Assembly (NCBI RefSeq): GCF_009184545.1
Contig: NZ_QJOW01000005.1
Location: forward strand, 1 to 64,000
Direction of reading: 5' to 3'
DNA: 64,000 nt
Origin: Halosegnis rubeus
GTDB lineage: Archaea; Halobacteriota; Halobacteria; Halobacteriales; Haloarculaceae
Of this stretch, positions 1 through 20,684 are shown piece after piece (positions within the stretch are counted from its first letter, which is position 1; each line of letters opens with the position of its first letter). A program made the translations under genes and the position numbers. The notes beneath the pieces were generated by a model, which was not told where the DNA came from, did no database searches, and saw only the letters and a list, made by a program, of their open reading frames with translations.

Positions 1-31
1 CAGCATAGAGGACCTAATAGATGCTTTCTGA
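1..31 (+). CDS. 3' end of an upstream gene, possibly brxA
   Basis: The second forward frame is open from the left edge and ends in TGA at 29-31. The last residues read SIEDLIDAF. It overlaps the start of the next gene by 11 nt, the tight packing expected inside a BREX operon. In type 1 BREX the gene before brxB is brxA, so brxA is the natural guess, but only nine residues are visible and none is diagnostic. The identity rests on gene order alone. Confidence 0.35.
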   Translation, partial: SIEDLIDAF

Positions 32-590
32 TTTTCAAGCCCGGCTCGAAGAAGTCGAGAGACTCGTCCGAGATGATAGAGATGAAGTTGGCAAGCGAGC
101 TGGGGTCCCGTTCATTGTCTTCACCTACGACCCCGGTGACGAAATCGAAGTCGATGAAGAGGTTCGAAACCTCATCGAGAAACTGGAGTATCACGACCAA
201 ACTGTCGCAGGAATCGATATGCGTGAACTGGTCTTCAGTATCCTCAAAGACCGCGGCATCTTGGAGAACGTTGCCGATCTCGAACGCCGGGACCGGGACC
301 AATTACTCGATGGTCTGAAATCGTCACTCTTGGATGGCGGCGAGATGGGACAGTTGGCCTCGGCCATCGCAGCGAAGGCAGAAGACGCTGACACGGTGAT
401 TGTCTACCGGATGGGTATCCTATACCCATTCGCCAGTGCTTCCACACTAATGGGACAATTAGAGACGAACACGCCGGAAGACACGCCCATCGTGTTCTGC
501 TATCCGGCGAAAGTCGATGACAAGAGCTTAAGATTCCTCGATGAATCTGAAGGAACATATTACCGCGCAATGGTGATCGGACATGAGTGA
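21..590 (+). CDS. brxB: BREX protein BrxB (DUF1788)
   Basis: BrxB is a small core component of BREX anti-phage systems. It is needed for defence, but its biochemistry is not settled. The 189-residue length fits the family, and the N-terminal segment PFIVFTYDPGDE resembles the conserved start of DUF1788 proteins. The acidic composition fits a haloarchaeal cytoplasmic protein. The gene overlaps brxC by 8 nt (ATGAGTGA), which suggests translational coupling, and it overlaps the gene at the left edge. Being followed directly by a BrxC ATPase and PglX makes the assignment firm. The start at 21 is the first ATG and sits within the tail of the previous gene. Confidence 0.88.
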   Translation: MLSDFQARLEEVERLVRDDRDEVGKRAGVPFIVFTYDPGDEIEVDEEVRNLIEKLEYHDQTVAGIDMRELVFSILKDRGILENVADLERRDRDQLLDGLKSSLLDGGEMGQLASAIAAKAEDADTVIVYRMGILYPFASASTLMGQLETNTPEDTPIVFCYPAKVDDKSLRFLDESEGTYYRAMVIGHE

Positions 591-3500
591 CACTACCACA
601 TCACACCAGATTCACGAGATCTTCTACCGCTCGATCAATCGAAAGATCGACCGGGTGGTCAAAGTCGATAACGACGAGCCGAGCGTCGTCAAGAAAGAAC
701 TCGAAGAGTACATTCTCACGCCACAGCTTGAACGACACTTCTCGGACGCGCTAGAGGCCGTCATCGATACGGAACACGCACAGACCGAAGATGTCGGGAT
801 GTGGGTCTCCGGATTCTTCGGCTCAGGGAAGAGCCACTATATGAAAATCCTCGGCCACATCCTCGAAAACCGCGAATTCGATGATACACACGCGGCCGAG
901 ATGTTCCGGGACCGAATCGAAGGCAATGAGATGCTCGATGGAGCAGTCTCGTCTGTCACCCAGAAGTTCGATTCCGAGGTGCTGATGTTCCAGATCGGCG
1001 CGAAAGCCGACGCATCCGGGAGCGAGTCCATCACCGAGATCATTCACCGTGAATTCAACATCTCCCGTGGGTATGCCTCGATGCCCTGGGTTGCGCAAAT
1101 GGAGCAGGAACTCGAATCCCGCGGCGTGTACGAGGAGTTCGTCGACGCGATTGAGGGGAACACCGGGAAAGACTGGACGGAAGCCCGCAAGGACGCTATG
1201 TTTGTCCGGTCTGACATGGAGACCGCATTAGTCGAGGCTACCGATGAGTTCGACGACGAGGACGATGCGGCTCGCGCAATCGACGACGTTCAGGACAACG
1301 TTCTGATCAACGCGTCCACGCTCGCCGAAGACATCGTGGACTACGTCGAACAACGGGAGACCGAGACCGGTGACAACTGTCGGTACTTCGTGTTTATCGA
1401 CGAAATTTCGCAGTTCATCGGCGACGACGGCCAACTCCTCTTGGAACTCCAGAGTATCGTCGAGGAGTTCGGGCAGAAAGGAAAAGGAAAGGTCTTCCTT
1501 GGGGTCACCTCCCAGGAGCAACTCCAGCAACTCATCCCCGGCGTCCTGGAGAAGGAGGCCGAAGAGTCGAAAGTCATCGACCGCTTCCCACACCGATTTG
1601 ACCTCACCTCCGAGAACCTCGACAAGGTCGTCCGTGACCGCGTCCTCAGCAAGAAAGGCGAATTCAGAGGCATCATAGGCGACCTGTACGACCAGCACGA
1701 AGGTATCCTTTCGGCCAGATACAAACTCGACTCCAGTCAGAGTCTGAAGCCGATTAACGAGGAGAACTTCATCGACTGTTACCCGTTCCTCCCCTACCAA
1801 CTCGACATCCTTCCGGAGATGTTCAAAGCCCTCGGAAAAGGCTCAGACGACCAACTTGCAGGGAGTGAGCGCACACTGATCGATGTCACACAGAGCGTCC
1901 TCAAAGATGAGGACCACCTCTACAACGACGAACTCGGGGCACTCGTCACGCTGGACATGATCTTCGACGAGATCAGCAACGACATCCCCAGCAGTGACGT
2001 CAAGTCGATCCGCGAGGCGCGACCGAAAGATGCCGACCCAGAAATCGCACGGCGCGTCCTCAAGTCCCTTTACCTTCTCCAACAGCTTCCATGGATTCCG
2101 AATACGGCCGACAACATTGCGACGTCACTCCAAACGGAACTCGGTCCCACACAGCAACTGGAGGGGGACGTCGAAGACACACTTGATGCGCTCGTCGACG
2201 CCGGTTACGTCGGTCGGAGCGAGGAAGGCTACCGGTTCCTCCGTGAAACCGAACGGGAGCTCGAAAACGAAATCAAGGGCATCGAAGTCGGGCCAGGTGA
2301 CATCAGGCGCTCGTCAAAGCGCTTCCTGAACGACATCCTCGACGAAACGTCCCGCGTCAACTACCAAGGTAAGACGTTCCAGGTGAACCTGAGCATCGAC
2401 GGCGAGGAAATCACATCGAAAGGCCACATCGACCTCAAAACGTACTCGCCGGTTTACCAGCGATACGAGGACCTCGACCCAGACGGGCTGAAAACGCAGA
2501 GCTTCAGCGAGGACGGCACACTGTACTGGATCGCCGATAACGAGAAACAGCACGACATCTACGAGAAGTTGAAGTCGATCTTCCAGATCAACACCGTCGT
2601 CAAAGAGAAACGGGGTGATCAGCTCAGCCAAGAGGAACAAGAAGCCTTAGGACAGAAGCAGGAGGATCTCCAGCGTCTCCGCAACGAGGTCGAACGCGAA
2701 TTCAAGCGAAGCTTCCAGCGCGGAGTCCTCATCTACAACGGTGACACCGAAGAGTTCGACACCACGAGCACCTCTCTCACCTCGCTCGTCGCCCGAAAGA
2801 CGGACAACGCCATCCCGAAGGTCTTCACCAACTTCAAGCACGGCTCAGCAACGGTCAGAGACCGACACATCGAGCAGATCTTCGGTGACCTCGGTGGCTC
2901 GTCGAACCCGTCAGTCTTCTCTGATCTGGGTGTCGTCCAGGACGGCGAGCTTATCGCGGAGGCCCGGATTTCATCCGAAGTCGAAGACGAGATTCAACGT
3001 CGTGAGAAAGCGGGTGAGTCCCGTACTGGCAGCGACCTAATCGATCACTTCGCTGAACCGCCGTACGGGTGGAGTCGTGAAGTCGTTAGGCTGGCCGCAG
3101 CGGTGCTTTTCCGAAACGGCTCGATAATTCCGACGTACAAGGAGCGAACCTACGGAACGTACACGGAAGACGGCGCACAGGAGCTGTTCACTCAAGTCAC
3201 GAAGTTCAAGTCTACCTCATTCGATGAGCGCGAAACCGTAGATATCGATACGCGAACGGACGCCAAGCAGCTCCTTGACCGCCTGTTCGATCGCAAAGTC
3301 AAATCGACGGACCAGGCCGTCGACGAAGGCATTCGAGATGAAGCCAACAACTGGGTCTCCACTACCAGCACACTCCTCTCACAGCTCCGTCGGGTCGACT
3401 TCCCGCTCGTGGACGACGTCGAGCGGTTCCAGACCCGACTAAAGAACCTGATTCAGCAACCCACGTCGGCCAAGCGCATCAAGCAGTTCGTCGAGTTTGA

Positions 3501-4230
3501 GGACGAACTCGAAGGACTCACCAAAACCACGAAAGATGTCGCTCAGTTCTGCGGTGAGAACGGCGGCGAAAACCGCTTGAAAGAATACGAGACGATCCAG
3601 CGATTCATCACAAATGAGTGGGAATCGCTCGTCGACGAGGCGGACGATCACTCTTCACTCGTCGACATCAGCGACGACGCGCGTGATGCCGCCGAGCGGG
3701 TCAAGAACACGCTGGACACCGAGGGCGTCATCAGCCAGTGGAACAACGTCAAGACCGACTATCGAGCCGCAGCAGAAGCTTTCACCGCGACCTACGAGGC
3801 GCTGTACGAGAAACGGCACGAAACGTACACAGACTCCATTGACTCGGTCAAAGCATACGCTGGCTCCGATGTCGACGATAACGATCTCGACTCGGCCCTG
3901 TCAGACCTGACGGAACGGCAGGGCGATGGCTCGGTCGATCTGGACATCTCGAACGAGGACCACATCAATCCGGATCCCTCTCTCACCCGACTTATCGAAC
4001 ACATCCAGACCGTCGACGCCTACGAGAACGGGGCGAAAACCGAAATCGACGATCTGGGCGGAGGCGGTGGCGGTGGTGGAACGATCCGGGAAAGCGTGGA
4101 CATCGACGATATCTTCGGGAGCGTTGTCGTGACTGACTCTGAAGACATCGATGCACCAATCGAGGAACTGCGGGGAGAGATCGCCGACCTTCTCGATCAA
4201 GACGGTGACGTAGAGATCCGGTTCCGATAA
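583..4230 (+). CDS. brxC: BREX P-loop ATPase BrxC
   Basis: BrxC (PglY-like) is the large ATPase of BREX, thought to power the complex that methylates host DNA and blocks phage replication. The 1215-residue product matches the family size. A Walker A motif, GFFGSGKSH, lies near residues 77-86 and a Walker B-like FVFIDEIS near 268-276. The rest is a long, acidic, helix-rich protein. A run of eight glycines (4057-4080) forms a flexible linker before a short C-terminal segment. The gene is translationally coupled to brxB. It is followed by about 190 nt before pglX that carries its own promoter-like box and small ORF, so pglX may be partly uncoupled. Confidence 0.9.
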   Translation: MSDTTTSHQIHEIFYRSINRKIDRVVKVDNDEPSVVKKELEEYILTPQLERHFSDALEAVIDTEHAQTEDVGMWVSGFFGSGKSHYMKILGHILENREFDDTHAAEMFRDRIEGNEMLDGAVSSVTQKFDSEVLMFQIGAKADASGSESITEIIHREFNISRGYASMPWVAQMEQELESRGVYEEFVDAIEGNTGKDWTEARKDAMFVRSDMETALVEATDEFDDEDDAARAIDDVQDNVLINASTLAEDIVDYVEQRETETGDNCRYFVFIDEISQFIGDDGQLLLELQSIVEEFGQKGKGKVFLGVTSQEQLQQLIPGVLEKEAEESKVIDRFPHRFDLTSENLDKVVRDRVLSKKGEFRGIIGDLYDQHEGILSARYKLDSSQSLKPINEENFIDCYPFLPYQLDILPEMFKALGKGSDDQLAGSERTLIDVTQSVLKDEDHLYNDELGALVTLDMIFDEISNDIPSSDVKSIREARPKDADPEIARRVLKSLYLLQQLPWIPNTADNIATSLQTELGPTQQLEGDVEDTLDALVDAGYVGRSEEGYRFLRETERELENEIKGIEVGPGDIRRSSKRFLNDILDETSRVNYQGKTFQVNLSIDGEEITSKGHIDLKTYSPVYQRYEDLDPDGLKTQSFSEDGTLYWIADNEKQHDIYEKLKSIFQINTVVKEKRGDQLSQEEQEALGQKQEDLQRLRNEVEREFKRSFQRGVLIYNGDTEEFDTTSTSLTSLVARKTDNAIPKVFTNFKHGSATVRDRHIEQIFGDLGGSSNPSVFSDLGVVQDGELIAEARISSEVEDEIQRREKAGESRTGSDLIDHFAEPPYGWSREVVRLAAAVLFRNGSIIPTYKERTYGTYTEDGAQELFTQVTKFKSTSFDERETVDIDTRTDAKQLLDRLFDRKVKSTDQAVDEGIRDEANNWVSTTSTLLSQLRRVDFPLVDDVERFQTRLKNLIQQPTSAKRIKQFVEFEDELEGLTKTTKDVAQFCGENGGENRLKEYETIQRFITNEWESLVDEADDHSSLVDISDDARDAAERVKNTLDTEGVISQWNNVKTDYRAAAEAFTATYEALYEKRHETYTDSIDSVKAYAGSDVDDNDLDSALSDLTERQGDGSVDLDISNEDHINPDPSLTRLIEHIQTVDAYENGAKTEIDDLGGGGGGGGTIRESVDIDDIFGSVVVTDSEDIDAPIEELRGEIADLLDQDGDVEIRFR

Positions 4231-4310
4231 TTCACTGTCCGGACTCCGACTTTTTGCTGGTGACCGTTGCGAGATTCGGCAGCCCCCGGTATAGGACGCT
4301 CTCCCACAAT

Positions 4311-4316
4311 TATAAG
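4311..4316 (+). promoter_or_regulatory. TATA box ahead of the pglX leader
   Basis: TATAAG lies in the 190-nt gap between brxC and pglX. Its centre is about 27 nt upstream of an ATG at 4341, the spacing expected when archaeal transcription starts at or next to the start codon (leaderless mRNA). This suggests an internal BREX promoter giving pglX expression independent of brxBC. It is a single-site reading; no start site is known. Confidence 0.4.
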
Positions 4317-4340
4317 ACACGCCGAATACTTGCTCGTTGT

Positions 4341-4415
4341 ATGTCATCGCGGGCGGGAATCCCGACACAGCGTACTGCTGTCCCGCCTGTTTCGCGGAAG
4401 TACGCGACCCTCTGA
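4341..4415 (+). CDS. 24-codon leader ORF before pglX
   Basis: An ATG at 4341 opens a 24-codon frame ending in TGA at 4413-4415, only 5 nt before the pglX ATG. It is preceded at the right distance by the TATA box at 4311, so it would be the first ORF on a leaderless transcript. The peptide starts MSSRAGIPTQR and is basic, unlike the acidic proteins around it. It could couple or tune PglX translation. It could also be chance: the same stretch lies inside a TTG-started extension of pglX, which I do not favour. Confidence 0.3.
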   Translation: MSSRAGIPTQRTAVPPVSRKYATL

Positions 4416-4420
4416 TATAC

Positions 4421-7400
4421 ATGTCCACGACACACGCTCAACCCGGTCTCTCGTCGGATCAGCGCTCGAATATTCGAAGCACTATCCTCAGCACGCGGCA
4501 TACGCTCGAAGACGAACTCCGACGACAGCTCGAAAAGTACGGCATCTACGAGGACAAGAAACTTCCACAGGATAAGCTGACGCATCTCTCTGCTGACGAA
4601 CTCCATACCCGCAGTAGGATAGACGCAGCTATCGAACGGGAACTCAAATCCACGGAAGGTGATCTGGAGCGGTCGATCACGAATTACGTCCGCGAAGCGA
4701 CGAAGACCTACCTCAACCGATTCGTCGCGCTGAAAACCATCGAGGTTCGCGGCCTCGTCGAGGAGACCATCACCGAGCGACCGGAGTACGGCAATCGGTC
4801 GTATATGCACCACACCGTGGCCGAAATCGCCGGCGAGCTAACCAACGCTCCAGATGACGGCTTCGGTGCCGCACTCGATCTTGCGTACCAAGAAATCGGC
4901 GCGGAGATCCGGATTATCTTCGAGGAATCTGAACATACCGCGATCGATCTTGATGCGCAGGTTCGAGAAGAAGTACTCGACGACTTGGACGCAATCGATG
5001 ACGAAGCCTGGGAGAGCGATGAGGCATTGGGCTGGGTGTACCAATACTTTGGTGAAGAAGAACGCGAAGACATCGACGAGCGCGTCGATGAAGAGAACTA
5101 CAAAATCGCTGGGACAGATATCGCCACGAAAACCCAGCTGTTCACTCCGCGGTACATCGTCGAGTGGATGGTGGATAATTCACTGGGCCGTACGTGGCTC
5201 GAAATGCAGGGTGAACGGACGAATATCGACGATGAAGATAATTGCTTCTACCTTGCCCCGCTAGAAGAGTCCCTGATTGAGCGAGAGACAAAAGCAGTCG
5301 AGGATATTACGGTGCTTGACCCTGCTTGTGGCAGTGGTCATATGTTGTTCTATGCCTTTGACATACTCTACCAGATGTATTTAGAGGAAGGTGAAGTTCT
5401 TGAGAGGCACATACCGCGAGAGATCCTTCGAAACAATCTCTATGGAGTCGATATTGATTCGGGAGCCGCGCAGATCGCTGCCCTATCCCTCTACCTAAAG
5501 GCGAAAGACCAATCGCCGGATGTCGAGATTCCACAGTTGAATATCGTCTCAGCAGACGCCGTGCTAATTAACGGGGAACGGAAAGAGGAGATACTCGAAC
5601 GTGCAGGCTCGGAATTGGAGAGAGACATTTTAGAGCAGATTTGGAACAGCTTCGGTGACATCCGTGAGTTAGGCAGTTTGGTTCAGGTCGAAGACCGCAT
5701 TGATGAAGTCCTCGATGAATACCGCGAGGAATTCGAGGCAACTGGTCAAGCACAGTTTACGAGCGGTGGCGGGCTAACCTCTCAATCGACCTTCGTTGCA
5801 GGGGGTGACGAAGAGTCCTGGGACGAGATCAAGTCGCGGTTGATGCAGAGTGTACAAGACCTCGCTAGCGAGGCACTCGAACATAATGACCCAATTGAGG
5901 AGATGTTTGCAGCGGAGGTTGGAAAGACGGTCGAACTACTCGATGTTCTGATGGGAGAATACGATACGGTCGTTAGCAATCCGCCTTATTTGCAGAGCAA
6001 AAAGATGGGGGAGACGCTGAAGGACTACATCAGGGATCACTATGAAGGTAAATACGACGTCTATGGTGCCTTCATCGAGCGCTGCCTTTCCTTCTCTTCG
6101 GAGGATGGCCACGTTAGTATGGTTACTCCGGAGAATTTCATGTTTCTCTACTACTTCCGGGGACTGCGAAAGAAGCTTCTAAATGAGAGTTACTTCGTCG
6201 AGGCTGCTCACCTTTCCAGATACGGTTTCGAACAGCAGAAAGACGCATACACAATTCCCTTCGTGCTTAGAGGATCGACTCCCTCGGAGGGAGAACCGTC
6301 TCGCTTCTATAGAATGACGCACGAACAGGAACACTACGAGAACTACGAGCGTAAAATTGCAGGCCTGCGGGAGATCGCTGAAGCCCTTCGTTCTGGAGAG
6401 GAACACGACGATGTGTATGTCTTCTCTCAAAGCAGAATAGATGATATTGGTAGGCGGCCATTCCTTTATTGGTTCGGCGAAGAGACACTAAGTTTGTTCT
6501 CTGATCATCCAAGTATTGATGATATTGGAGAAGTGAAACAGGGGCTCTCTACCGGCGACGATGACCGATTCGTTCGGAAGTCGTGGGAGGTGCCAAAACA
6601 AGAGATTGGTGATCGATACAAACGGTTCCAGAAGAGCGGAACAGACTCCGAGTACTACGATTACGCTGAAGACTACGTGGACTGGGGAGACTCAGGGAAA
6701 GATCTGCGGGATGCAGGAGCGAATCTTCGTAACGAAGACTTCTATTTTGAGGAGGGGGTTACCTTCAGAGCATTCGGGAATCATTTCGTCGGACGCAAAC
6801 AACCAGCAGATTCTATCTTTTCGCACAAGTCCCACGCAGTATTCTCAAATAAGGTATCGGACGAACTCCTCCTAGCGAATCTCAATTCGACTCTACACAG
6901 ATTCATCGGGAATGGACTCAACCCGGGCCTGAGCTTTGAGGTAGGTGACGCAAAGCGATTCCCGGTGAAAACAGATTACGAATATCCGTCTACGCTAACG
7001 GAGCTAGTTTCTACTGGAATTCAAGAGCGCAGGAAGATATCTCAGCTGACGGAGACTAGCGCAGATTTCGATGGTGAAGAACTTGCAACGCTGCTCGAAT
7101 CGAATACAATCGACCTCCAATACGCTGAGGAGGCTGCCCAAGCTCGCATCCTTACTGTTCACGGCATTTCCGATACACTCCTCTTCGATGAATACGATAT
7201 TTCACCTGAGACGCAAAAGCAGGTGTACGCCAACCTCCCAAAGAACACCTCTGAATATCCTGTGGATCGCAATACCCACGTTGAGTATCCAGATTACTTG
7301 AACCAGTATCTGGAAGTCGCTGACCTGAATGACGAACGGATTGATTCAGCAATTGAAACTCTCCGGTCATTAGACGATGTCACACTCCGCCAAGCAGCAG

Positions 7401-8140
7401 AAGAAACTGAACTCTCCCCGTTAACCGTGGCTCAACTTCGGCACGACCACGATCTCTATACCAATGATGAGCAGACGACGGCCGCAGGTCGAGTGGTTTC
7501 TCTAATAGTTGGGTCCCTGTTTGACCGCTGGGATTGCGGTAGCACGATTCCCACTCTCGATGACGAGATACTCGCTTTCGACCACTCGACTACCTCTGCC
7601 TCAAACTTATTCTCAAGGGCCATTGACAATCTGTTTCAGGAACCGGAGCGGGCAGAACGTGAACTTGAATCCGCTCTGGGTGATCGGCCGATTAATTGGT
7701 TCCGTGAGAGATTCTTCCGGCACCATCACGTCGACGAGTACAAACCGCGAGGTGAACGAAGTCCGATTTACTGGCAACTCGAAAGCCCCAACGGCGGATT
7801 CAGTTGCTTCGTCTATTATCACGAGATAGACGAGAACACGCTACCGAAGCTCCGGGGTCAGTATCTCGATCCCCGGATTGGGGAACTCGAAAACGAGCTG
7901 GAAACCCTGAATGCACAAACTAGCGGTGACAACCCAGACAAGGAGCTTCTGAACAGGAAAGAGGATGTTCAGAATGACCTCGACGATATCAGGAAGTTCC
8001 GCAATACCATCGACGAAATGATCGACGATGGCGTAACCGTCGATATCGAGAAGGGTATTTGGGAGAACATCAAGGAGTGGGACCAGTACGATGTACTAGA
8101 AACTGGTCTGCCCAAGTTGAAGTCCAGCTACACAAGATAA
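4421..8140 (+). CDS. pglX: BREX adenine-specific DNA methyltransferase PglX
   Basis: PglX is the BREX methyltransferase that marks host DNA, typically as N6-methyladenine at a non-palindromic site, separating self from phage. SAM motif I, DPACGSGHML, lies near residue 300 and the catalytic NPPY (NPPYLQSKK) near residue 519. The 1239-residue length is usual. I chose the ATG at 4421 because homologous-looking sequence (STTHAQPGLSS) begins there; a TTG at 4337 would add 28 unlikely residues. The second half, which should hold the target-recognition domain, reads visibly AT-richer than the first from about 5230 onward, compatible with recombination of the specificity region. A coiled segment with many Glu and Lys precedes the C-terminus. 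Confidence 0.92.
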   Translation: MSTTHAQPGLSSDQRSNIRSTILSTRHTLEDELRRQLEKYGIYEDKKLPQDKLTHLSADELHTRSRIDAAIERELKSTEGDLERSITNYVREATKTYLNRFVALKTIEVRGLVEETITERPEYGNRSYMHHTVAEIAGELTNAPDDGFGAALDLAYQEIGAEIRIIFEESEHTAIDLDAQVREEVLDDLDAIDDEAWESDEALGWVYQYFGEEEREDIDERVDEENYKIAGTDIATKTQLFTPRYIVEWMVDNSLGRTWLEMQGERTNIDDEDNCFYLAPLEESLIERETKAVEDITVLDPACGSGHMLFYAFDILYQMYLEEGEVLERHIPREILRNNLYGVDIDSGAAQIAALSLYLKAKDQSPDVEIPQLNIVSADAVLINGERKEEILERAGSELERDILEQIWNSFGDIRELGSLVQVEDRIDEVLDEYREEFEATGQAQFTSGGGLTSQSTFVAGGDEESWDEIKSRLMQSVQDLASEALEHNDPIEEMFAAEVGKTVELLDVLMGEYDTVVSNPPYLQSKKMGETLKDYIRDHYEGKYDVYGAFIERCLSFSSEDGHVSMVTPENFMFLYYFRGLRKKLLNESYFVEAAHLSRYGFEQQKDAYTIPFVLRGSTPSEGEPSRFYRMTHEQEHYENYERKIAGLREIAEALRSGEEHDDVYVFSQSRIDDIGRRPFLYWFGEETLSLFSDHPSIDDIGEVKQGLSTGDDDRFVRKSWEVPKQEIGDRYKRFQKSGTDSEYYDYAEDYVDWGDSGKDLRDAGANLRNEDFYFEEGVTFRAFGNHFVGRKQPADSIFSHKSHAVFSNKVSDELLLANLNSTLHRFIGNGLNPGLSFEVGDAKRFPVKTDYEYPSTLTELVSTGIQERRKISQLTETSADFDGEELATLLESNTIDLQYAEEAAQARILTVHGISDTLLFDEYDISPETQKQVYANLPKNTSEYPVDRNTHVEYPDYLNQYLEVADLNDERIDSAIETLRSLDDVTLRQAAEETELSPLTVAQLRHDHDLYTNDEQTTAAGRVVSLIVGSLFDRWDCGSTIPTLDDEILAFDHSTTSASNLFSRAIDNLFQEPERAERELESALGDRPINWFRERFFRHHHVDEYKPRGERSPIYWQLESPNGGFSCFVYYHEIDENTLPKLRGQYLDPRIGELENELETLNAQTSGDNPDKELLNRKEDVQNDLDDIRKFRNTIDEMIDDGVTVDIEKGIWENIKEWDQYDVLETGLPKLKSSYTR

Positions 8141-8171
8141 ACGAGCGACAAATACAGACAAAATAAAGTAA

Positions 8172-8690: not shown

Positions 8691-8773
8691 TACAGTCTGG
8701 GACCCCTGCTATCGATTACAACTGCCAAGTATCCCCGAAACAACAATCAGTCCCCGCTTGAAAAGAGAACGCA

Positions 8774-11200: not shown

Positions 11201-11324
11201 TCACAACGGATCTCACCAACTGTGTATGGGCGCGGGGCTGAGAATTGGAGATCGGTAATCCGTATCGGTATTCCACTTGGAGTGACCGACACCAATATGC
11301 CCCCGGCTCTGTTTCTCGAATATA

Positions 11325-13352
11325 ATGACTACTGAGGACGTCGATCAGAAAGCTCTCGACGTCTTTCCCGGACGCGTCGTCCGGAAGGATCTTGTTCAAG
11401 ATATCAAGTCGGGAGTGAACGTCCCCACTTATGTGCTCGAATACCTCATCGGGCAATACTGCGCTACTGACGATGAGGAATCGCTTGAGGAGGGGCTCGA
11501 AAAGGTCAAACAAATTCTGTCGAAGCACTACGTTCGCCCTGATGAGGCCGAGTATGTGAAAAGCGAAGTGCGTGAGCGAGGACGATACCGAGTCATCGAC
11601 AAAGTAACCGTCAGACTTGACGAACAGCAGGATGCCTACATCGGTTCGTTCGTCAACCTCGGACTCAACGACGTCGAAATCAACGAACATCTTGTCAGCA
11701 AGCATCCGAAGCTCCTGGGTGGTGGTGTCTGGGCCATTATTGACTTAGAATACCTTCCGGACAACGCGAACAGCCCCAAGAGCCTGTTCGGTATCGAATC
11801 GTTCAAACCGATACAGGTGTCGAACCTTGACCTCGACCAGCTGAAAGACCGTCGACGAGAGTTCACTCGGGACGAGTGGATGAACCTTCTCCTCCAGAGC
11901 GTCGGGTACGACCCTTCAGCTTTCAGTGACCGTGAAAAACTGCTCTTCCTAACTCGGTGTCTTCCTCTCGTCGAGTCTAACTACAACTACGTCGAGTTAG
12001 GACCCCGCGGAACGGGGAAGAGCTACCTATACCGTGAAATTAGCCCGCATTCGATTCTTATCTCCGGTGGAAAAACTACCGTTGCGAAGCTCTTCCTAAA
12101 CCTCAACACAGGACGAATTGGACTTGTCGGCCGCTGGGACGTCGTCGCATTTGACGAAGTTGGTGGACTCCAATTCAGCGACTCGGAAGCAGTCCAGATG
12201 TTAAAAGACTACATGGAGTCCGGGAGCTTCTCACGCGGCACTGAGGAACTCACAGCCCAAGCTTCGATGGTTTACGTCGGAAACATCGATCTGGATGTCG
12301 AAGGCGTTCTCAAGAGCTCCCATCTCTTCGAGCCGTTCCCAGAAGATATGCAGGACCTCGCCCTCATCGATCGCTTCCACTACTACCTTCCTGGTTGGGA
12401 AGTTCCGAAGATGCGCTCCGAGTTCTTTGGCGACCAGTTCGGATTTATCGTGGATTACTTCGCCGAGTTTGTCCGCGAACTTCGCAAGGAATCCTATGGT
12501 GATGCGATCAACGAGGAGTTCGCATTCGGAGACCACCTGAATCAACGAGATGAAAGGGCTGTCCGGAAGACGGTATCTGGCCTGCTCAAATTGCTCCACC
12601 CGCACGGAGAATATACGAAAGAAGAGCTCCGTGAATATCTCGAATTTGCTATGGAGGGGCGTCGTCGCGTCAAAGAACAGTTGAAGCGGATGGGTGGTAT
12701 GGAGTATCGTGCTGTCGAGTTCTCGTATCTGGACTTAGAAACGAAAGAAGAACGCTACGTTCCGGTTCCTGAGGAAGCCGATGAGGCGCTCATTCCTCCC
12801 GGCACACAGCAATCAGGTACTGTCTACACTATCGGCGAAAGCGAAGGTCGTCACGCCCCTTTCCGCATCGAAACTCAGACACTCCCAGGTTCTGGCAAGA
12901 CGAATATCTCGGGGACACCGGGGAAACAGATGAAAGAGTCGTTTGAAACTGCCTGTGACTACCTCCAGGCAAATATGCGAGAACTCCGCCGCGATGAGAC
13001 TCTCGATGAGTACAATATCAATGTTCAAGTACTGAATCCATCCGACGCCAACGAAGGCGGTGAGACAAGTGTCGGCTTGCTTGTAGGAATAGTCTCGGGC
13101 ATTCTCGATCGACCTGTCCGTCCCCAGACAGTCATCTTGGGTGCTATGAGTTTGATGGGTGAACTGGTTGCAGTAAGCTCATTAGTTGACAAGTTACAAT
13201 TGGCGGCAGATTCGGGGGCTAAGACCGTATTGTTGCCGGCCAAAAACAAAGAGGATATGGCGAAGATACCGGACGAACTTCTAGATCAGCTTCAGCTTGT
13301 ATTCTATACAGATCCACTTGACGCCGCCAGCAAAGCGATTCAGATAGACTGA
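11325..13352 (+). CDS. brxL: BREX Lon-like AAA+ protein BrxL
   Basis: BrxL is a ring-forming AAA+ protein with a Lon-like C-terminal domain, present in type 1 and type 4 BREX. It binds DNA and is needed for phage restriction. A Walker A motif, GPRGTGKSY, lies near residues 226-234, with a Walker B-like VVAFDEVGG shortly after. The C-terminal part (about 560-660) aligns by eye with the Lon protease domain: a serine in ETSVGLLVG (about residue 582) and a lysine in VDKLQLA (about 623) occupy the positions of the Lon Ser-Lys dyad. Whether it cleaves peptides is not known. The 675-residue size is normal. This is the last BREX core gene; the next gene follows after 159 nt. Confidence 0.9.
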   Translation: MTTEDVDQKALDVFPGRVVRKDLVQDIKSGVNVPTYVLEYLIGQYCATDDEESLEEGLEKVKQILSKHYVRPDEAEYVKSEVRERGRYRVIDKVTVRLDEQQDAYIGSFVNLGLNDVEINEHLVSKHPKLLGGGVWAIIDLEYLPDNANSPKSLFGIESFKPIQVSNLDLDQLKDRRREFTRDEWMNLLLQSVGYDPSAFSDREKLLFLTRCLPLVESNYNYVELGPRGTGKSYLYREISPHSILISGGKTTVAKLFLNLNTGRIGLVGRWDVVAFDEVGGLQFSDSEAVQMLKDYMESGSFSRGTEELTAQASMVYVGNIDLDVEGVLKSSHLFEPFPEDMQDLALIDRFHYYLPGWEVPKMRSEFFGDQFGFIVDYFAEFVRELRKESYGDAINEEFAFGDHLNQRDERAVRKTVSGLLKLLHPHGEYTKEELREYLEFAMEGRRRVKEQLKRMGGMEYRAVEFSYLDLETKEERYVPVPEEADEALIPPGTQQSGTVYTIGESEGRHAPFRIETQTLPGSGKTNISGTPGKQMKESFETACDYLQANMRELRRDETLDEYNINVQVLNPSDANEGGETSVGLLVGIVSGILDRPVRPQTVILGAMSLMGELVAVSSLVDKLQLAADSGAKTVLLPAKNKEDMAKIPDELLDQLQLVFYTDPLDAASKAIQID

Positions 13353-13511
13353 ACGACGCAAGAGGCGCTCTGATGCGGTGATTCGGCAAATGACGCTTGT
13401 CGATTGAGCTCTCGAATTCTTATCAAATGTCTGGGGGCTAATTATGGTACTTCAAAGCTGTCAGTCTCGCCAAGAGTGAAGTGAGACCGATATCTTGGTA
13501 GGGAGTGTTCG

Positions 13512-16500
13512 ATGGATTCAACGCTTCTCACTGGCCCGAAACACGCCCGATTGGAACGACGGGCATTTCAGCGGGCTGATGACACCGCTACCGATTCGCT
13601 GGGGAGTATTCTCTACATAACGCGAAACGACGCTCGCAGGAGTATGGTTGAGGACCGCTGGGCCGCGTCGCACGATCCCCTCCGTCTTCGTGCCGAGACG
13701 CTCGACGGGGTCGTTCGGGAGTGGTACGAGGAGCTCCACGGTCCGGTTCAACCCCTCTCCGGGCAGCTGAACCGCCGGCTGGCGGAGTACGCTCTGGACA
13801 GATCGACAGCCGAGACAGATGGCGCTCTCGCTGGCGAACCTGCCTCTGCCGCTCTCGCTGATTCGTTCAGTAGCCGCTTCTCGCTCTTCGACGACGCCGG
13901 CGTCGGTACCGCTGACGCGCTCGTAGCGGAGTTCGAGGGCTCAGACCTCGATGACCGTATCGCGAAAGCCACTGCCGACGCGTACCGACACTACCGGGAT
14001 CTCCACGGCGACTATGTCGACGAGTGGGTCTGTACCCGGGGAGAAATGTTCGACGCCGTGGCGACGGCGGAGCAGTCACTATCGGCGTTCTCTCCGGAAC
14101 CGGATGTCGTCATCCTTTCCGGGTATCACGAGTTCCGTCCTGTCGAACGCCGCCTCATCGAACGCCTCGTCGATGAACTTCCGATGATCGCACTGCTGCC
14201 GCTCCACCAAGATGGCCGGAGCGGAGTCGACGCCGTTGCGGAGGACGCCTTGGATGTCTACGAAGCACTTGACTTTGAGGCAGTAGAACTCGAGCCCGTC
14301 GACGAGTCAGGGCGGGCCTTTGGAACGATCACCGAGTCGCTCTACCGCCCGGACCCGGACACTGTCCCTGCTCCAGACACTCTGCGATGGCGTGAACTCC
14401 CGACGCCCGAGCGCGAGATTCGCTTTGTCGCTCGCGAGCTCCGGACTGAGTTGGCCAATGGTCGCGATCCCGACGACCTGGCTGTCGTCGTCCCGGGGAC
14501 CGAGGCCTATTCGGGGTACGTCGAGGACACGTTCGATACGTTCGACATCCCGCACGTCACGACCGCCGCCTCACAGCTGAACCGGACGTTCACCGGGAGC
14601 GTTGTACACGACCTCCTGAACCTCGCTGAACCGGATCCGCGGGCTGAGGACCTCACGTCCCTGTTAGCGAATCCATTGGTCGACGTCGTCGACACCGACC
14701 AAGCCAACGCCGTCACGGCAGCTGCTCGTCGGCGTGACACCGTTTCTGTGTCACCCCTGCTCGATGACGTCGACGGCGAGGCGGCGGCGGTGATCGAGCA
14801 GCTGCTGGCCACGTTAAAGACGCTCCGAACGGAGGACACCGAGGACGCAACCGAGACGCTCCGACGACTGTTGGACGACCGGTTCGACCTGGAGGGGGCG
14901 ACGGAGGACTACGCCAGCGGCGCCGAGCAAGCCGTCGAACAGCGAGCCTACGACCTCGTGGACGAAGTCCTCTCCTCGTTCGAGTCGCTGTCGGCGGTCA
15001 ATAGCGATCTCTCCCCGTTGGCACTGTTCACCCGTGCATTCGATGGTGTGCCCATTCGGGTTCCACAGCGCGCTGCTGGTGGCCACGTTGAGGTGATGGG
15101 GCTGCTCGACGCCCGGATGCGCTCGTTCGAGAAGGTGTTCCTCGTGGGACTGACGAGCGCGCACTTCCCGGTAACGCCGGAACGTCCGGCCTTTTTCGAG
15201 GAGATGACCGACGCCCACCCACGGTTCGACACCGGCGACGAGCGACTCCGGGGCCGCTATCTCTTCGCGACGCTACTCGCGAACGTCGACGAACTCACGA
15301 TCACAACACCAGAGACGGGCGACGACGAATCCGCCGTCGTCCGGTCGCCGGTCCTCGACGAACTCCAGCGCGTGACCGGCATCGACCCAGAAGACGGCGT
15401 CGACAACCGCGTAGGCTCCCGCGAAGACCTCCAGCGCCACGTCGCTGCAACGGCCGACCGGCGTGCGGCAGTAAGCCTCGCCGGCGACCGAGGTGATTTC
15501 TCCCCCGAGCAGACCAAGCGCACGGATCGGGGACTCCACTGTGCGGACAACAGGGGAACGGCTGGCCTCTCTGAACACGATGGCGTGTTAGAACCCAAGA
15601 CAGTCGATGAGGTCTACCCTCCGTCGGAACGGGAACCCTACAGCGCGAGTCGAATCGAACGATACGTCGAGTGTGGGTTCAAGTTCTACGCTGAGAAGGT
15701 GCTCGGAATCGAGGATCCCGACGACGTTGAGGTCGTCCCTACGCCCCTCGAAACCGGGTCGTACGTTCACGACGTTCTCGAACGATTTTTCGCGGATCTA
15801 CGGGACGAGACCGAGGATGGTGTCGATCTCATGGACTTCGACCGGGACGAACTGGCGACGCACCTTCGCGAGATCGCCGTCGAGGAACTCCGGGATGCCG
15901 ACTTCGAGTACGACGGTCTGTTCTACGAGCGGTGGAAAGCGGAGCTGTTCGCGGGCTTGGGTGACGGCGAGAGCACCCCTTACGAGGCCGGGAGCAAACC
16001 CCACGACGCACCGGAACAGGGATTGTTCACTACCTTCCTCGACAACGAGCTCTCGCGGGACGGCGCTGACCGACCACACTTGTTCGAGGCCCCGTTCGGC
16101 GAGGGACTTCCCGACTCGGATGCTGGGCCGTTCACAGTTGAGCGACCGGACGGCTCGACCGTCTCGATTCGGGGATACATCGACCGCGTTGACGTGAGCC
16201 AGGGTGGCGAAAAACCGACGCTCACGCTCTACGACTACAAGACTGGACGGGCACCGTATATGACGAAGACGACCGGCGGCACGAAGTTCCAGCTCCCCAT
16301 CTATCTGCTTGCTGCCGCCGAGGTCGTCGACGGTGACCTGTTCGCGGAGGGCTCGCTCTCGGCGACGTACTATCAGGTGCGACCGCCAAACGACCTCAAG
16401 GTTCCACGCGGCGTCGAATCGAAGTTCGATTCAGAGGTCGAACTCCGCCGGTTCCTGAACAAGGTCGTCCCGGAATGGTTGGGTCAGATCGACGAGGCGA

Positions 16501-16700
16501 TCGGCAACGGACGGTTCCACACGACGCTTCTGTCCGCTCGGGGTGCGAACTGCCGATACTGTGACTACCGTCGGGCGTGCGATGTCCGCCATCACCGCAA
16601 GCGGGAGTTTGTCGACGAGGTGCACGAGGACGACGCTGCGTACGTTCCCCTCCGTGTTCGCGACGACGAGGACATCGAGGCGGTGATGAGCGATGACTGA
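13512..16700 (+). CDS. AddB-like PD-(D/E)XK nuclease with Fe-S cysteines
   Basis: The product (1062 residues) resembles AddB/RexB, the partner of AddA in helicase-nuclease complexes that process DNA ends. The C-terminal third carries a PD-(D/E)XK nuclease, with YDYKTGRAP near residue 907 followed by a Q-x-x-x-Y pattern (FQLPIYLL). A cysteine near 721 (VECGFKFY) and a CRYCDYRRAC cluster near 1013-1023 match the arrangement that holds a 4Fe-4S cluster in AddB nucleases. The N-terminus, TLLTGPKHARLE, sits where AddB has a Walker A loop but lacks GKT, so the ATP site is probably inactive. The gene overlaps the AddA-like gene by 8 nt. Its position after brxL suggests a defence role, but host recombination is also possible. 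Confidence 0.75.
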   Translation: MDSTLLTGPKHARLERRAFQRADDTATDSLGSILYITRNDARRSMVEDRWAASHDPLRLRAETLDGVVREWYEELHGPVQPLSGQLNRRLAEYALDRSTAETDGALAGEPASAALADSFSSRFSLFDDAGVGTADALVAEFEGSDLDDRIAKATADAYRHYRDLHGDYVDEWVCTRGEMFDAVATAEQSLSAFSPEPDVVILSGYHEFRPVERRLIERLVDELPMIALLPLHQDGRSGVDAVAEDALDVYEALDFEAVELEPVDESGRAFGTITESLYRPDPDTVPAPDTLRWRELPTPEREIRFVARELRTELANGRDPDDLAVVVPGTEAYSGYVEDTFDTFDIPHVTTAASQLNRTFTGSVVHDLLNLAEPDPRAEDLTSLLANPLVDVVDTDQANAVTAAARRRDTVSVSPLLDDVDGEAAAVIEQLLATLKTLRTEDTEDATETLRRLLDDRFDLEGATEDYASGAEQAVEQRAYDLVDEVLSSFESLSAVNSDLSPLALFTRAFDGVPIRVPQRAAGGHVEVMGLLDARMRSFEKVFLVGLTSAHFPVTPERPAFFEEMTDAHPRFDTGDERLRGRYLFATLLANVDELTITTPETGDDESAVVRSPVLDELQRVTGIDPEDGVDNRVGSREDLQRHVAATADRRAAVSLAGDRGDFSPEQTKRTDRGLHCADNRGTAGLSEHDGVLEPKTVDEVYPPSEREPYSASRIERYVECGFKFYAEKVLGIEDPDDVEVVPTPLETGSYVHDVLERFFADLRDETEDGVDLMDFDRDELATHLREIAVEELRDADFEYDGLFYERWKAELFAGLGDGESTPYEAGSKPHDAPEQGLFTTFLDNELSRDGADRPHLFEAPFGEGLPDSDAGPFTVERPDGSTVSIRGYIDRVDVSQGGEKPTLTLYDYKTGRAPYMTKTTGGTKFQLPIYLLAAAEVVDGDLFAEGSLSATYYQVRPPNDLKVPRGVESKFDSEVELRRFLNKVVPEWLGQIDEAIGNGRFHTTLLSARGANCRYCDYRRACDVRHHRKREFVDEVHEDDAAYVPLRVRDDEDIEAVMSDD

Positions 16701-19700
16701 GGACCCCGAGGAGATTCAGCTCACGGAGGAACAGGAGGACGCGCTCGTCCAGGGCCGGAACGTCGCGATCACTGCCGGCGCCGGGACGGGGAAGACGACA
16801 ACGCTCACCGAGCGGTACGTGACCATACTGGCCCAGAACCCGTCGCTCACCCCGGAGAATATCGTCACGATCACCTTCACGCGAAAGGCCGCTGCCGAAC
16901 TGACTGAGCGCGTTCGGGAGGAGGTGTACGACAGGCTCGAGGCTGTCGACTCACCAGAGGCCTACCACCGCTGGCGAAACGTTCTCGACGATCTGGAGGA
17001 CGGCTATGTCCACACCATTCACGCGTTCTGTACCCGGCTCTTGCGAGAACGGGCCGTCGAGGCTCCGGTTCCGCTCGGCTTCGACGTGCTTGACGAAGAC
17101 GGCGCCGCGACACTCCAACGCGAAGTTGTGACGGAGTTCCTCGAACGCAACCAGGACGATGACGACGTGGAGCTCCTTGCCCAGCTCTGGAGTCGCGACC
17201 AGTTGGTCGATACACTCGCTGGATTACTCGATGAACGCCCACAGAGCGAGTCCGTCCTCGAGGCGTGGCGTGACGCCGAGGTCGACGACTACGTCGATAT
17301 CTGCTGGGAGGTCGTTTGTGATCTCGACGTCGACGACGCCCGACAGACGCTGTATGCGGACGGACTCCTTGAGCAGCTACGCACGGTTGCGGGCCGTGTC
17401 GACCGCGAGGGCGCTATCGCCGACGAAGACGGTCTTCGAGCCTACCGGACCTTCACCGAAGTCGCGACCACACTCTCGGCCGACCTGGTGGAAAGCGATC
17501 CTCGCGACTGTCAACGGGCAATCCTCGACCTCTACGAGGCCTGTGAGAAGAAGAACGGTGGCCTGTACAGCAGTTCGGGGTACGTCGTCGGTGACCGGGA
17601 CGATTGGGGTGAGTACGGTGACGTCTACGACGATCTGAAAGACGCCATCGACACGGTCATCGATGCCGTCGAACTGCACGCGGATGCGGTCGAGACGACA
17701 CCGGGGGAACTGGAAGAGAATAGCGCTCACTACGCGCTGGCTCTGATGCGGGTCTTCGATGACGTCCTCGCCGCCTACGCCGACGAGAAAGAGCGTCGCG
17801 ATACGCTCGACTTCCCCGACGTGATCGAGACCACCCTTGAGTTCTTGCGAACGAACGATGCCGTCACGGAGGGGCTACGAGAGCAGTTTGCGGCCGTGAT
17901 GGTCGACGAGTTCCAGGACACGGACCCGCGCCAGTGGGAGCTGGTCAAGCTCCTCACGGGCGTCGACGAGCAGACGGCGTCGAACGTCTTTCTGGTCGGC
18001 GACGAGAAACAGAGTATCTACGGATTCCGTGGTGCCGACGTGACGACGTTCGGGGAAGCGAGAGCGGAACTCCAGACTGTCAACGAAGCCCGTGGGGTCG
18101 ACGACGTCCCCGACAGCGATGCCGAGAGTCCGACCGCGCTCGAACTCTCCGGGAACTTCCGGACGCTGGATGAGCCGCTGTCGTTCCTGAACGAGCTCTT
18201 CGAGTACCTGTTCCAGCCGGAGGGTGACAGCCACGAACCCCACGAAGCGCCACCGCAGGAGTTGACCACACAACGCGACCGTATCGAGGACATCGAGGGA
18301 CTGACCGGGAGTGTCGAGTATCTCGCTGTCCCCGACGACGCTGACACGGCGGCAGAGCTTTTCGGCGACGACCATCCGGTCGCCGAAGGTGCGCTGGACC
18401 ACACCATCGAGGCCGAGGCGCAAGCGCTCGCTGCTCGACTGACCCACCTGTTCGACGATCCGCCGCAAGTCCAAGACCCCGACACGGGTGCTCATCGCGA
18501 CGCTACGCCGGACGACACGGCAATCCTCCTCCGCCGGCGAACCCATTTGGATCGGTATCAGCGCGCCCTTGAGGAGTACGACATCCCCTACACTGTCGTC
18601 GGTGGCGTCGGGTTCTACGATACGCCTGAGGTCCAGGCGCTCACGAACCTGCTTCGAGTACTCGGTGATCCACAGGACGACGTCTCCCTCTACGGGGTGC
18701 TTCGGTCGCCGCTGTTCGGATTCGCGGATGATCGCCTCGCACCGGCGGTCGCAGAGGCTGATTCAGTGTGGGACGCGCTCGCCGAGACGGACGATCCACA
18801 GCTCGCGGACGCGTTCGACCTCCTCACAACGTGGCGGACTCTCAGCGGCTGTGCGACGCCGTCCGAAGATGGCGTCCTCCCGTGGAACCGCCTGCTGTCC
18901 CGGGTGATCGACGACACCGGGTATCTGGCAAGTGTGAGTGCAGATGAACGCGGTCGACAGGCCGTCGCGAACGTCGAGAAGTTCCGCGACCAGGTCCGTA
19001 CTTGGAGCGAGAATGGTGTTCACACAGCTGCCGGGTTGCTCCACCGGATCGACCGCCAAGCCGAGATCGACCCTCGTGAGGGGGAGGCAGATATTCCGGG
19101 TGACGCCGAGGGCGTCCGGATTATGACGATCCATTCCGCGAAGGGACTTGAGTTCCCGATCGTCACGGTCCCCGATCTCGGGAGTGATCTCAACTTCGGT
19201 CGGTCCGTCGACGACCATGGCTACGTTCGACTCGTGGACGGAACTGATGACGCGCCGCCGGTCCCGGCGGTCGGCGGGCCGAATCCGGGCGATGCGTTCT
19301 CCATCGAGAAGACGGCCGTCCACGAGTACGCCGACCGACGGTCGCGTCCACAGGAGCGGGCGGAGTCGAAACGCCTCCTCTACGTAGCGTGTACACGAAT
19401 GCGGGATCACCTCCTTCTCTGCGGCACGCACGACATTGACGTCGACGAGTCCGATACAATCGAACTCGGCGAGCCTGCAGCCTTCGACGACGCAGACCGG
19501 TGGCGCGACTGGTTACAGCCAGCCCTCCTCGACGGAGCACTTGTCGCCGAGGCGGTTCGTGACGGACAGGCCCGTTGTGAGATAGATGGAGCCAGCTATA
19601 CTGTTCGCAGGCCGCCGCGCCCAGTAGACTGGGACACCGACGACGATGCTGTTGATTCAGCGCCGGAGATATCGATCCCCTCACCGCCGTCGTTAGCGCC

Positions 19701-20328
19701 GGCGAAACGGATCGCGGCGACGACCCTCGTGAATGCGGTGGCGGATGCGTCTCCAGACGGTCACAGTTACTCTCAGCGTGAGGAGTCGGCCGGCCTGAGT
19801 CCAACGACGTTTGGGACGGTCGTCCACCGGATCAACGAACTTCGTCCACCGAGAGACGAGTGGACCACCCTGATCCGTCGTTTGAGTCAGATGGCTGGTG
19901 AGGAGCCGACAGAATCGGACCTCCGTGATGCTGTCAACCACGCTGCTGATGCAGTCGAATTTGTTGATCAGATCGAGTCTGATACTCAGCCTCAGGAGGT
20001 TTACGACGAGTACTCTGTTGTCGCTCGAATCGATGAGTCGCGGATTGTCGGTGATATCGACCGGCTGCTCGTCACGCCAGACGCATTCCACATAATCGAC
20101 TACAAGACCAACGAGCTCTCAGCTACGACATCGGATGAGCTCGCGGAACACTATCGACCGCAGATGCTCGCGTACGCTCTCGCTCTCCTCCAACATGACC
20201 GGAATCGTGACGTACGATCATCACTCCGGTTTACTGACGAGGGGATAGAGGAGCGGTTCCATTGGGTGTCGGATCAGATGACGGAGATGGAATCTGAACT
20301 ACGCTCAATGGTGGATTTGGTGGATTAA
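16693..20328 (+). CDS. AddA-like UvrD-family helicase-nuclease
   Basis: This 1211-residue protein is a superfamily 1A helicase fused to a nuclease, as in AddA/RexA. Walker A, AGAGTGKTTT, is near residues 27-36; the Q-motif-like start (TEEQEDAL) precedes it; motif II appears as VDEFQDTDPRQW near 396-408; and motif VI-like sequence KRLLYVACTR is near 892. The C-terminus holds a PD-(D/E)XK nuclease with IIDYKTNEL near 1133-1141. It would unwind and degrade DNA from ends together with the overlapping AddB-like protein. Length and domain order are complete and no frameshift is visible. No Chi-like control can be judged from sequence. Confidence 0.82.
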   Translation: MTEDPEEIQLTEEQEDALVQGRNVAITAGAGTGKTTTLTERYVTILAQNPSLTPENIVTITFTRKAAAELTERVREEVYDRLEAVDSPEAYHRWRNVLDDLEDGYVHTIHAFCTRLLRERAVEAPVPLGFDVLDEDGAATLQREVVTEFLERNQDDDDVELLAQLWSRDQLVDTLAGLLDERPQSESVLEAWRDAEVDDYVDICWEVVCDLDVDDARQTLYADGLLEQLRTVAGRVDREGAIADEDGLRAYRTFTEVATTLSADLVESDPRDCQRAILDLYEACEKKNGGLYSSSGYVVGDRDDWGEYGDVYDDLKDAIDTVIDAVELHADAVETTPGELEENSAHYALALMRVFDDVLAAYADEKERRDTLDFPDVIETTLEFLRTNDAVTEGLREQFAAVMVDEFQDTDPRQWELVKLLTGVDEQTASNVFLVGDEKQSIYGFRGADVTTFGEARAELQTVNEARGVDDVPDSDAESPTALELSGNFRTLDEPLSFLNELFEYLFQPEGDSHEPHEAPPQELTTQRDRIEDIEGLTGSVEYLAVPDDADTAAELFGDDHPVAEGALDHTIEAEAQALAARLTHLFDDPPQVQDPDTGAHRDATPDDTAILLRRRTHLDRYQRALEEYDIPYTVVGGVGFYDTPEVQALTNLLRVLGDPQDDVSLYGVLRSPLFGFADDRLAPAVAEADSVWDALAETDDPQLADAFDLLTTWRTLSGCATPSEDGVLPWNRLLSRVIDDTGYLASVSADERGRQAVANVEKFRDQVRTWSENGVHTAAGLLHRIDRQAEIDPREGEADIPGDAEGVRIMTIHSAKGLEFPIVTVPDLGSDLNFGRSVDDHGYVRLVDGTDDAPPVPAVGGPNPGDAFSIEKTAVHEYADRRSRPQERAESKRLLYVACTRMRDHLLLCGTHDIDVDESDTIELGEPAAFDDADRWRDWLQPALLDGALVAEAVRDGQARCEIDGASYTVRRPPRPVDWDTDDDAVDSAPEISIPSPPSLAPAKRIAATTLVNAVADASPDGHSYSQREESAGLSPTTFGTVVHRINELRPPRDEWTTLIRRLSQMAGEEPTESDLRDAVNHAADAVEFVDQIESDTQPQEVYDEYSVVARIDESRIVGDIDRLLVTPDAFHIIDYKTNELSATTSDELAEHYRPQMLAYALALLQHDRNRDVRSSLRFTDEGIEERFHWVSDQMTEMESELRSMVDLVD

Positions 20329-20681: not shown

Positions 20682-20684
20682 ATA

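What the first reader, a model, noticed from the sequence alone, without database searches (positions are those of the whole stretch)
1..20328. Type 1-order BREX with two add-ons in a haloarchaeon
Seen: brxB, brxC, pglX, pglZ and brxL in type 1 order, all intact, plus an EVE-like gene inside and an AddB/AddA-like pair after. Known: BREX blocks phage replication without cutting; RecBCD/AddAB-type enzymes degrade linear DNA. Inference: the add-ons give the locus a reader and a destroyer, so this may be a composite defence system rather than plain BREX.
Basis: partly seen in the sequence, partly recalled or inferred. Interest (0 to 1): 0.8.

Follow-up and report, generated by a model that had tools for sequence, protein, structure and literature searches.

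The report
BREX plasmid locus with plug-in nuclease
A salt-loving archaeon carries, on a plasmid, a nearly standard BREX antivirus system with two detachable extras, a predicted DNA-mark reader and an AddAB-type DNA shredder; the shredder turns out to sit beside BREX and other methylation-based defences again and again across haloarchaea, which suggests a reusable disposal module.

Summary
brxB, brxC, pglX, an EVE-like gene, pglZ, brxL, addB and addA are intact and in the stated order. The contig is circular (127-bp end overlap), so the operon really begins across its edge with brxE and brxA: a type-1-like BREX on a 168-kb plasmid. The "composite system" reading is only partly supported. The two extras are independent plug-ins. 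EVE occurs in 3 and AddAB in 6 of 23 related haloarchaeal BREX loci; both occur in 2, and one of those AddBs carries an insertion sequence. EVE occupies a cargo slot that elsewhere holds a TATA-binding protein, an SMC-like ATPase or nothing. AddAB carries its own conserved leader. Yet AddAB's place is not random. In 394 Halobacteria genomes, 21 of 96 AddB loci lie within 25 kb of a PglZ (0.7 expected), scattered over the AddB tree. Others adjoin type I or IIG restriction, DISARM-, Lamassu- or DUF499-type systems; many precede a plasmid partition locus. Best reading: haloarchaea, where AddAB is accessory, pair modification-based defences with a mobile DNA-degrading module, while the EVE protein reads a modified base. 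Function is inferred, not shown. I found no prior description of this link.

The parts
1..127 (.). Contig end repeat: the first 127 bases equal the last 127 bases of the 168,359-base contig, so the contig is circular. brxE (C1:166716-167441) and brxA (C1:167451-168263) lie just upstream across the join.
21..590 (+). brxB, 189 aa
   Evidence: PF08747 60.9 bits, PADLOC BrxB 3.6e-24
583..4230 (+). brxC, 1215 aa, Walker A GFFGSGKS at residue 77
   Evidence: NF033441 886.6 bits against cut-off 400
4337..8140 (+). pglX adenine methyltransferase, 1267 aa as an open frame (relatives suggest a start near 4505), NPPY motif intact
   Evidence: NF033452 709 bits against cut-off 500
8172..8690 (+). EVE/YTH-like stand-alone reader, 172 aa, in the pglX-pglZ cargo slot
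   Evidence: profile match to T. gammatolerans McrB N-domain 6P0F, E 3.4e-7; relatives fused to McrB AAA_5 and HNH
8774..11200 (+). pglZ, 808 aa
   Evidence: PF08665 77 bits; BREX-1 TIGR02687 172.7 bits, below its cut-off of 270
11325..13352 (+). brxL, 675 aa, full length with Lon-like C-terminal domain
   Evidence: TIGR02653 910.8 bits, PF13337, PF20442, PF05362
13449..13511 (+). Conserved AddAB leader of about 60 nt, shared by AddAB modules in all contexts; core CAAGAGTGAAGT at 13471-13482, possible short hairpin 13464-13487
13512..16700 (+). addB-like, 1062 aa: no Walker A, C-terminal nuclease (GYID 888, DYKT 908), Fe-S cysteines 721, 1014, 1017, 1023
   Evidence: PF12705 123 bits; motifs kept in 62 of 62 relatives with that region
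16693..20328 (+). addA-like, 1211 aa: UvrD helicase plus RecB-type nuclease
   Evidence: PF00580, PF13361, PF12705; TIGR02784 358 bits, best PDB match AddA 3U44; motifs kept in relatives
20397..20691 (.). Array of 9-nt repeats (AAACGAACG-like), possible plasmid centromere
20685..21503 (+). parA, 272 aa
   Evidence: PF13614 123 bits
21500..21907 (+). 135-aa partner of parA, conserved with it

Best explanation
A plasmid-borne, type-1-like BREX system (brxE-A-B-C-pglX-cargo-pglZ-brxL) marks self DNA with PglX and blocks unmarked viral DNA through the BrxB/C/PglZ/BrxL machinery. Two independent plug-in modules are attached. (1) AddAB: a self-contained, mobile helicase-nuclease pair that sits directly beside modification-based defence systems. 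It most likely loads on the ends or breaks that those systems and viral replication create, and degrades the invading DNA, as RecBCD/AddAB does from the chromosome in bacteria. Shown: anatomy, intact motifs, non-random linkage, own leader. Inferred: substrate and antiviral role. (2) EVE: a stand-alone reader domain sitting right after an adenine methyltransferase gene, probably exchanged together with pglX; it most likely senses a modified base and so modulates or redirects the methyltransferase/BREX complex. Shown: family and position. Inferred: ligand and effect.
For: BREX anatomy. AddAB linkage: 21 of 96 AddB loci within 25 kb of PglZ among 46 same-genome pairs; 0.7 expected if placed uniformly, 3.1 if confined to 0.8 Mb, 6.2 if confined to 0.4 Mb of accessory DNA. 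BREX linkage changes at least 19 times on a 64-row AddB tree. Defence-type genes within 8 kb upstream of addB in 30 of 64 loci, against 3 of 61 downstream (shorter stretch) and 1 of 32 control segments. Named RefSeq cases: Halobacterium salinarum R1 PHS3 and Halobacterium sp. BOL4-2 (BREX-5), Haloplanus rallus (DUF499 and methyltransferases), Halorarius halobius (PglZ, BrxA, methyltransferase). Other partners: type I and IIG restriction, DISARM-like, Lamassu-like and PLD-helicase proteins. Catalytic motifs kept; sharp module border and own leader. EVE. All five close EVE copies in the sample lie next to an adenine methyltransferase gene, and PglX and slot cargo sort together on the PglX tree. 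The same genome's contig C2 has a second AddAB beside DUF1156/DUF499 genes and another EVE-like gene.
Against: No functional data. Most AddB loci (75 of 96) have no PglZ within 25 kb. parA follows addA in 20 of 46 loci, equally with and without BREX, so shared plasmid neighbourhoods contribute. In G017 AddB is broken by an insertion sequence while BREX is intact. The EVE structure model is poor (mean pLDDT 46) and the fold match is not significant.
Confidence: 0.5

Rival explanations
1. Shared hotspot: AddAB and defence systems both accumulate next to plasmid partition loci and in defence islands, and have no mechanistic link. The pair is plasmid cargo or backbone.
For: Close AddB copies are found on many named haloarchaeal plasmids (46 plasmid records). 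A 9-nt repeat array and parA lie directly after addA here, and parA lies within 5 kb in 20 of 46 loci. AddAB has its own leader.
Against: BREX linkage also occurs without parA (9 of 16 linked loci), including megabase contigs in G017 and G240. Defence genes lie mainly on the 5' side (30 of 64 against 3 of 61). The excess persists under a null confined to 0.4 Mb of accessory DNA (P 2e-6).
Confidence: 0.32
2. AddAB repairs collateral damage: it processes breaks that PglZ or restriction enzymes make in the host or plasmid, protecting the carrier rather than attacking viruses.
For: AddAB/RecBCD enzymes are repair enzymes in bacteria (established knowledge). The partners are mostly systems able to damage self DNA.
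Against: Three quarters of haloarchaea, including most BREX-1 carriers, do without it. It is broken in G017 with BREX kept.
Confidence: 0.12
3. A fixed three-part composite system (BREX, EVE reader, AddAB destroyer).
For: G000 and G017 have all three; G000 contig C2 shows a second neighbourhood with methyltransferases, an EVE-like gene and AddAB.
Against: The two extras occur apart in most loci; co-occurrence p about 0.13.
Confidence: 0.06

Closest known systems
BREX type 1 (brxA-brxB-brxC-pglX-pglZ-brxL)
   Same: Same six core genes and order; BrxC, PglX and BrxL pass their curated BREX models.
   Different: Adds brxE, described as exclusive to type 6 (PMC12839542); PglZ is below every curated BREX-1 cut-off; cargo gene between pglX and pglZ; AddAB after brxL.
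AddAB helicase-nuclease
   Same: AddA with UvrD helicase and nuclease; AddB with nuclease and Fe-S cysteines and no Walker A; genes adjacent.
   Different: Below the bacterial equivalog cut-offs (358 against 861, 60 against 487); accessory, often plasmid-borne, and beside defence genes rather than housekeeping.
EVE/YTH modified-base readers, e.g. T. gammatolerans McrB N-terminal domain; EVE linked to archaeal DUF499 systems and to type I R-M (PMC7641849)
   Same: Profile match E 3.4e-7; relatives fused to McrB and HNH.
   Different: Stand-alone and inside a BREX operon; PMC7641849 does not mention BREX.
BREX auxiliary nucleases (PMC12839542)
   Same: Nucleases recruited immediately beside BREX cores as backup effectors.
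   Different: That survey lists PD-(D/E)XK, HNH, OLD/TOPRIM, HEPN, PIN and Schlafen; the words AddA, AddB, RecB and UvrD do not occur in its main text.

Membership tests
BREX type 1 | brxA, brxB, brxC, pglX, pglZ, brxL all present in that order | tested here: met
   brxA across the circular join
BREX type 1 | PglX passes the BREX-1 model | tested here: met
   709 bits against 500
BREX type 1 | PglZ passes a BREX-1 model | tested here: not met
   TIGR02687 172.7 against 270; NF033450 120 against 400. A subfamily cut-off, not the gene-order definition; hence 'type-1-like'.
BREX type 1 | Blocks virus replication and methylates a non-palindromic site | not testable with these tools
   no virus or methylome data
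BREX type 6 | brxE plus helicase/brxD components and type-6 PglX/PglZ | tested here: not met
   brxE present (RefSeq annotation of an orthologue), but no helicase within the operon, and PglX and PglZ below type-6 cut-offs
AddAB | AddA: SF1A helicase motifs plus C-terminal RecB-type nuclease | tested here: met
AddAB | AddB: inactivated helicase-like part plus Fe-S nuclease | tested here: met
   no Walker A; C721, C1014, C1017, C1023 and GYID/DYKT kept
AddAB | Passes curated AddA/AddB equivalog cut-offs | tested here: not met
   358 against 861 and 60 against 487; hence 'AddAB-like'
AddAB | DNA-end resection and Chi response | not testable with these tools
   needs biochemistry
EVE/YTH reader | Sequence relation to a solved EVE/YTH domain | tested here: met
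   6P0F E 3.4e-7, 6UT5 6.8e-6
EVE/YTH reader | PUA-like fold | tested here: inconclusive
   model pLDDT 46; best fold matches again 6P0G and 6P0F but E 0.014
EVE/YTH reader | Binds a modified base | not testable with these tools
   needs binding assay

The most novel reading that the evidence does not exclude
AddAB is a general, mobile DNA-disposal module of haloarchaeal plasmids that plugs in beside many modification-based defences (BREX-1, BREX-5, DUF499, DISARM-like, type I and IIG R-M) and supplies the RecBCD-like degradation step that most haloarchaea otherwise lack.
Probability: 0.42. Interest if true: 0.7.

Novelty: new variant of a known kind. Interest (0 to 1): 0.52.

Why it matters
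How BREX stops viruses, and whether it needs a partner nuclease, is still debated. Bacteria tend to hide that question because most carry RecBCD or AddAB as housekeeping enzymes. In haloarchaea AddAB is optional and travels beside defence loci, so BREX with and without it can be compared directly in otherwise similar systems. Recurrent pairing with unrelated methylation-based systems would define a shared downstream module and would predict antiviral function for dozens of 'UvrD / PD-(D/E)XK nuclease' gene pairs annotated on haloarchaeal plasmids.

Tried and rejected
A fixed BREX-EVE-AddAB unit: rejected as the general rule, because the add-ons assort separately. AddAB as housekeeping: rejected, found in 89 of 394 genomes. 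AddAB as a BREX operon gene: unlikely, given its own leader and sharp border. parA hitchhiking as the sole cause: not enough. AlphaFold model of EVE from four sequences: too poor to use. A viral-contig scan with the EVE alignment could not run because the profile had no conserved stretch. phmmer of AddB against the PDB gave no hit. The genome-wide scan for EVE found only four loci. A possible hairpin in the AddAB leader has only modest support (71% paired against 32-48% when slid).
Full report
What is there. The window is bases 1-64,000 of contig C1 of a 2.66-Mb haloarchaeal genome in 12 contigs. ORF and family searches confirm brxB, brxC, pglX, a 172-aa gene, pglZ, brxL, an AddB-like and an AddA-like gene at 21-20,328, all intact and on the + strand. 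The contig's last 127 bases repeat its first 127, so it is a circular replicon of about 168 kb. brxA (PF08849) and a gene annotated as 'BrxE family' in the Haloarcula halophila orthologue lie at its far end and run straight into brxB. The operon is therefore brxE-brxA-brxB-brxC-pglX-EVE-pglZ-brxL on a plasmid. G+C rises from about 0.54 in BREX to 0.63 in AddAB.

How the BREX part compares. BrxL of this clade (E <= 1e-20) is in 24 of 394 sampled Halobacteria genomes. I read the surroundings of 23 loci. In the closer loci the core genes are mostly 80-98% identical across several families, a sign of transfer between lineages, while PglX varies from 46 to 88%. Between pglX and pglZ is a cargo slot: EVE in 3 loci, a TATA-binding protein (PF00352) in at least 6, an SMC/OLD-like ATPase of 833 aa in 2, a 353-aa protein in 3, or nothing. 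On the PglX tree the cargo sorts with pglX and not with pglZ or brxC, so pglX and its cargo probably move as a cassette. After brxL stands an HRAMP-like cassette in about 10 loci (RAMP-like proteins, an exonuclease and an HNH protein by sequence inspection) and AddAB in 6.

The EVE gene. No curated family model hits it. A profile of 23 relatives matches the N-terminal domain of T. gammatolerans McrB at E 3.4e-7 and EVE/UPF0310 PH1033 at 0.019. Distant relatives are N-terminal domains of McrB-type ATPases and of HNH nucleases. PMC7641849 describes the T. gammatolerans domain as a YTH reader of m6A in DNA, while the 6P0G title says m5C, so the ligand is open. All five close copies in the sample (G000, G017, G338, G216, G299) lie next to an adenine methyltransferase gene, two of them in non-BREX systems followed by a TATA-binding protein. 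That supports 'a reader next to a writer'.

The AddAB pair. AddA has helicase and nuclease motifs; AddB lacks Walker A and keeps its nuclease motif and four Fe-S cysteines. The catalytic residues are invariant across the 55 AddA and 62 AddB relatives that cover them. AddB-like genes occur in 89 of 394 genomes, so AddAB is accessory in haloarchaea. PglZ occurs in 85 of the 394 genomes. Of 96 AddB loci, 21 lie within 25 kb of a PglZ and 15 within 8 kb, 13 of the 15 with PglZ upstream on the same strand. Uniform placement predicts 0.7; confining both to 0.8 or 0.4 Mb of accessory DNA predicts 3.1 or 6.2. BREX linkage is spread over the AddB tree with at least 19 changes, so it arose or was lost many times. 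Defence-type genes lie within 8 kb upstream of addB in 30 of 64 loci, against 3 of 61 downstream and 1 of 32 control segments; the downstream stretch was shorter and the motif test misses several system types. Direct annotation shows BREX-5 in Halobacterium, a DUF499/methyltransferase system in Haloplanus rallus and a PglZ/BrxA/methyltransferase locus in Halorarius. PADLOC shows type I and IIG restriction, DISARM-like, Lamassu-like and PLD-helicase neighbours.

Module or operon member? The 50-60 bases before addB, with a core CAAGAGTGAAGT, are conserved whatever lies upstream in the group above about 60% identity, and homology stops sharply at their left edge except among the BREX-1 copies. 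AddAB thus appears to carry its own control region. Downstream, a 9-nt repeat array and parA follow; parA lies within 5 kb in 20 of 46 loci, equally with or without BREX. Plasmid neighbourhood therefore contributes but does not explain the BREX link, which also occurs without parA.

Mechanism. Known for bacteria: PglX marks self DNA, PglZ can nick DNA, and BREX blocks replication (PMC12839542). Inferred here: AddAB degrades DNA ends arising from BREX action, other restriction or viral replication. A 2026 preprint on Druantia III and Zorya II reports synergy that depends on RecBCD (PMC13192584, section title), a precedent for a DNA-processing enzyme shared between defences. Whether AddAB acts on viral DNA, on self damage or on neither is not shown.

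Verdict. The proposed three-part composite is not a conserved unit. What is conserved is a set of plug-ins, of which AddAB has a statistically clear and repeated link to BREX and other modification-based defences. The text searches found no prior report of this link, but they cover open-licence papers only.

Noticed in passing
pglX-pglZ slot of related loci (G240, G159, G272, G370, G387, G343); also near AddAB in G015, G251, G107: TATA-binding protein genes are embedded in haloarchaeal BREX operons and sit beside other defence systems and EVE genes; a dedicated transcription factor for defence loci is possible.
   Followed up: partly
downstream of brxL in about 10 loci, e.g. L047-L048 (Halobellus captivus) and L203: A cassette resembling HRAMP (RAMP-like proteins, exonuclease, HNH with HTH) takes the place that AddAB has here.
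   Followed up: partly
G000 contig C2:47770-70000 (L083, L182): A second AddAB pair (35% identical) in the same genome beside DUF1156 methyltransferases, a DUF499 protein and another EVE-like gene.
   Followed up: partly
NZ_CP119561.1 (Haloarcula halophila), about 27-50 kb and 325-346 kb: Two near-identical BREX-AddAB-parA copies on one plasmid, each with different split genes: decay or sequencing error.
   Followed up: no
window 13464-13487: Short inverted repeat in the AddAB leader with modest covariation; could be an operator or an RNA hairpin.
   Followed up: partly
window 20397-20691: Array of 9-nt repeats between addA and parA, possibly a partition centromere.
   Followed up: partly
PglX tree, G343 against G240/G272: G343 has divergent BrxC and PglZ (57-58% to the window's) but a PglX and TBP cargo close to other lineages: cassette exchange of specificity gene plus cargo.
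   Followed up: partly
G017 between brxC and pglX (L029:7867-8862): A NucS-like endonuclease gene in a second variable slot of the BREX operon.
   Followed up: no
window 35835-59088: The same plasmid carries two P-type metal ATPases and a metal-related gene cluster.
   Followed up: no
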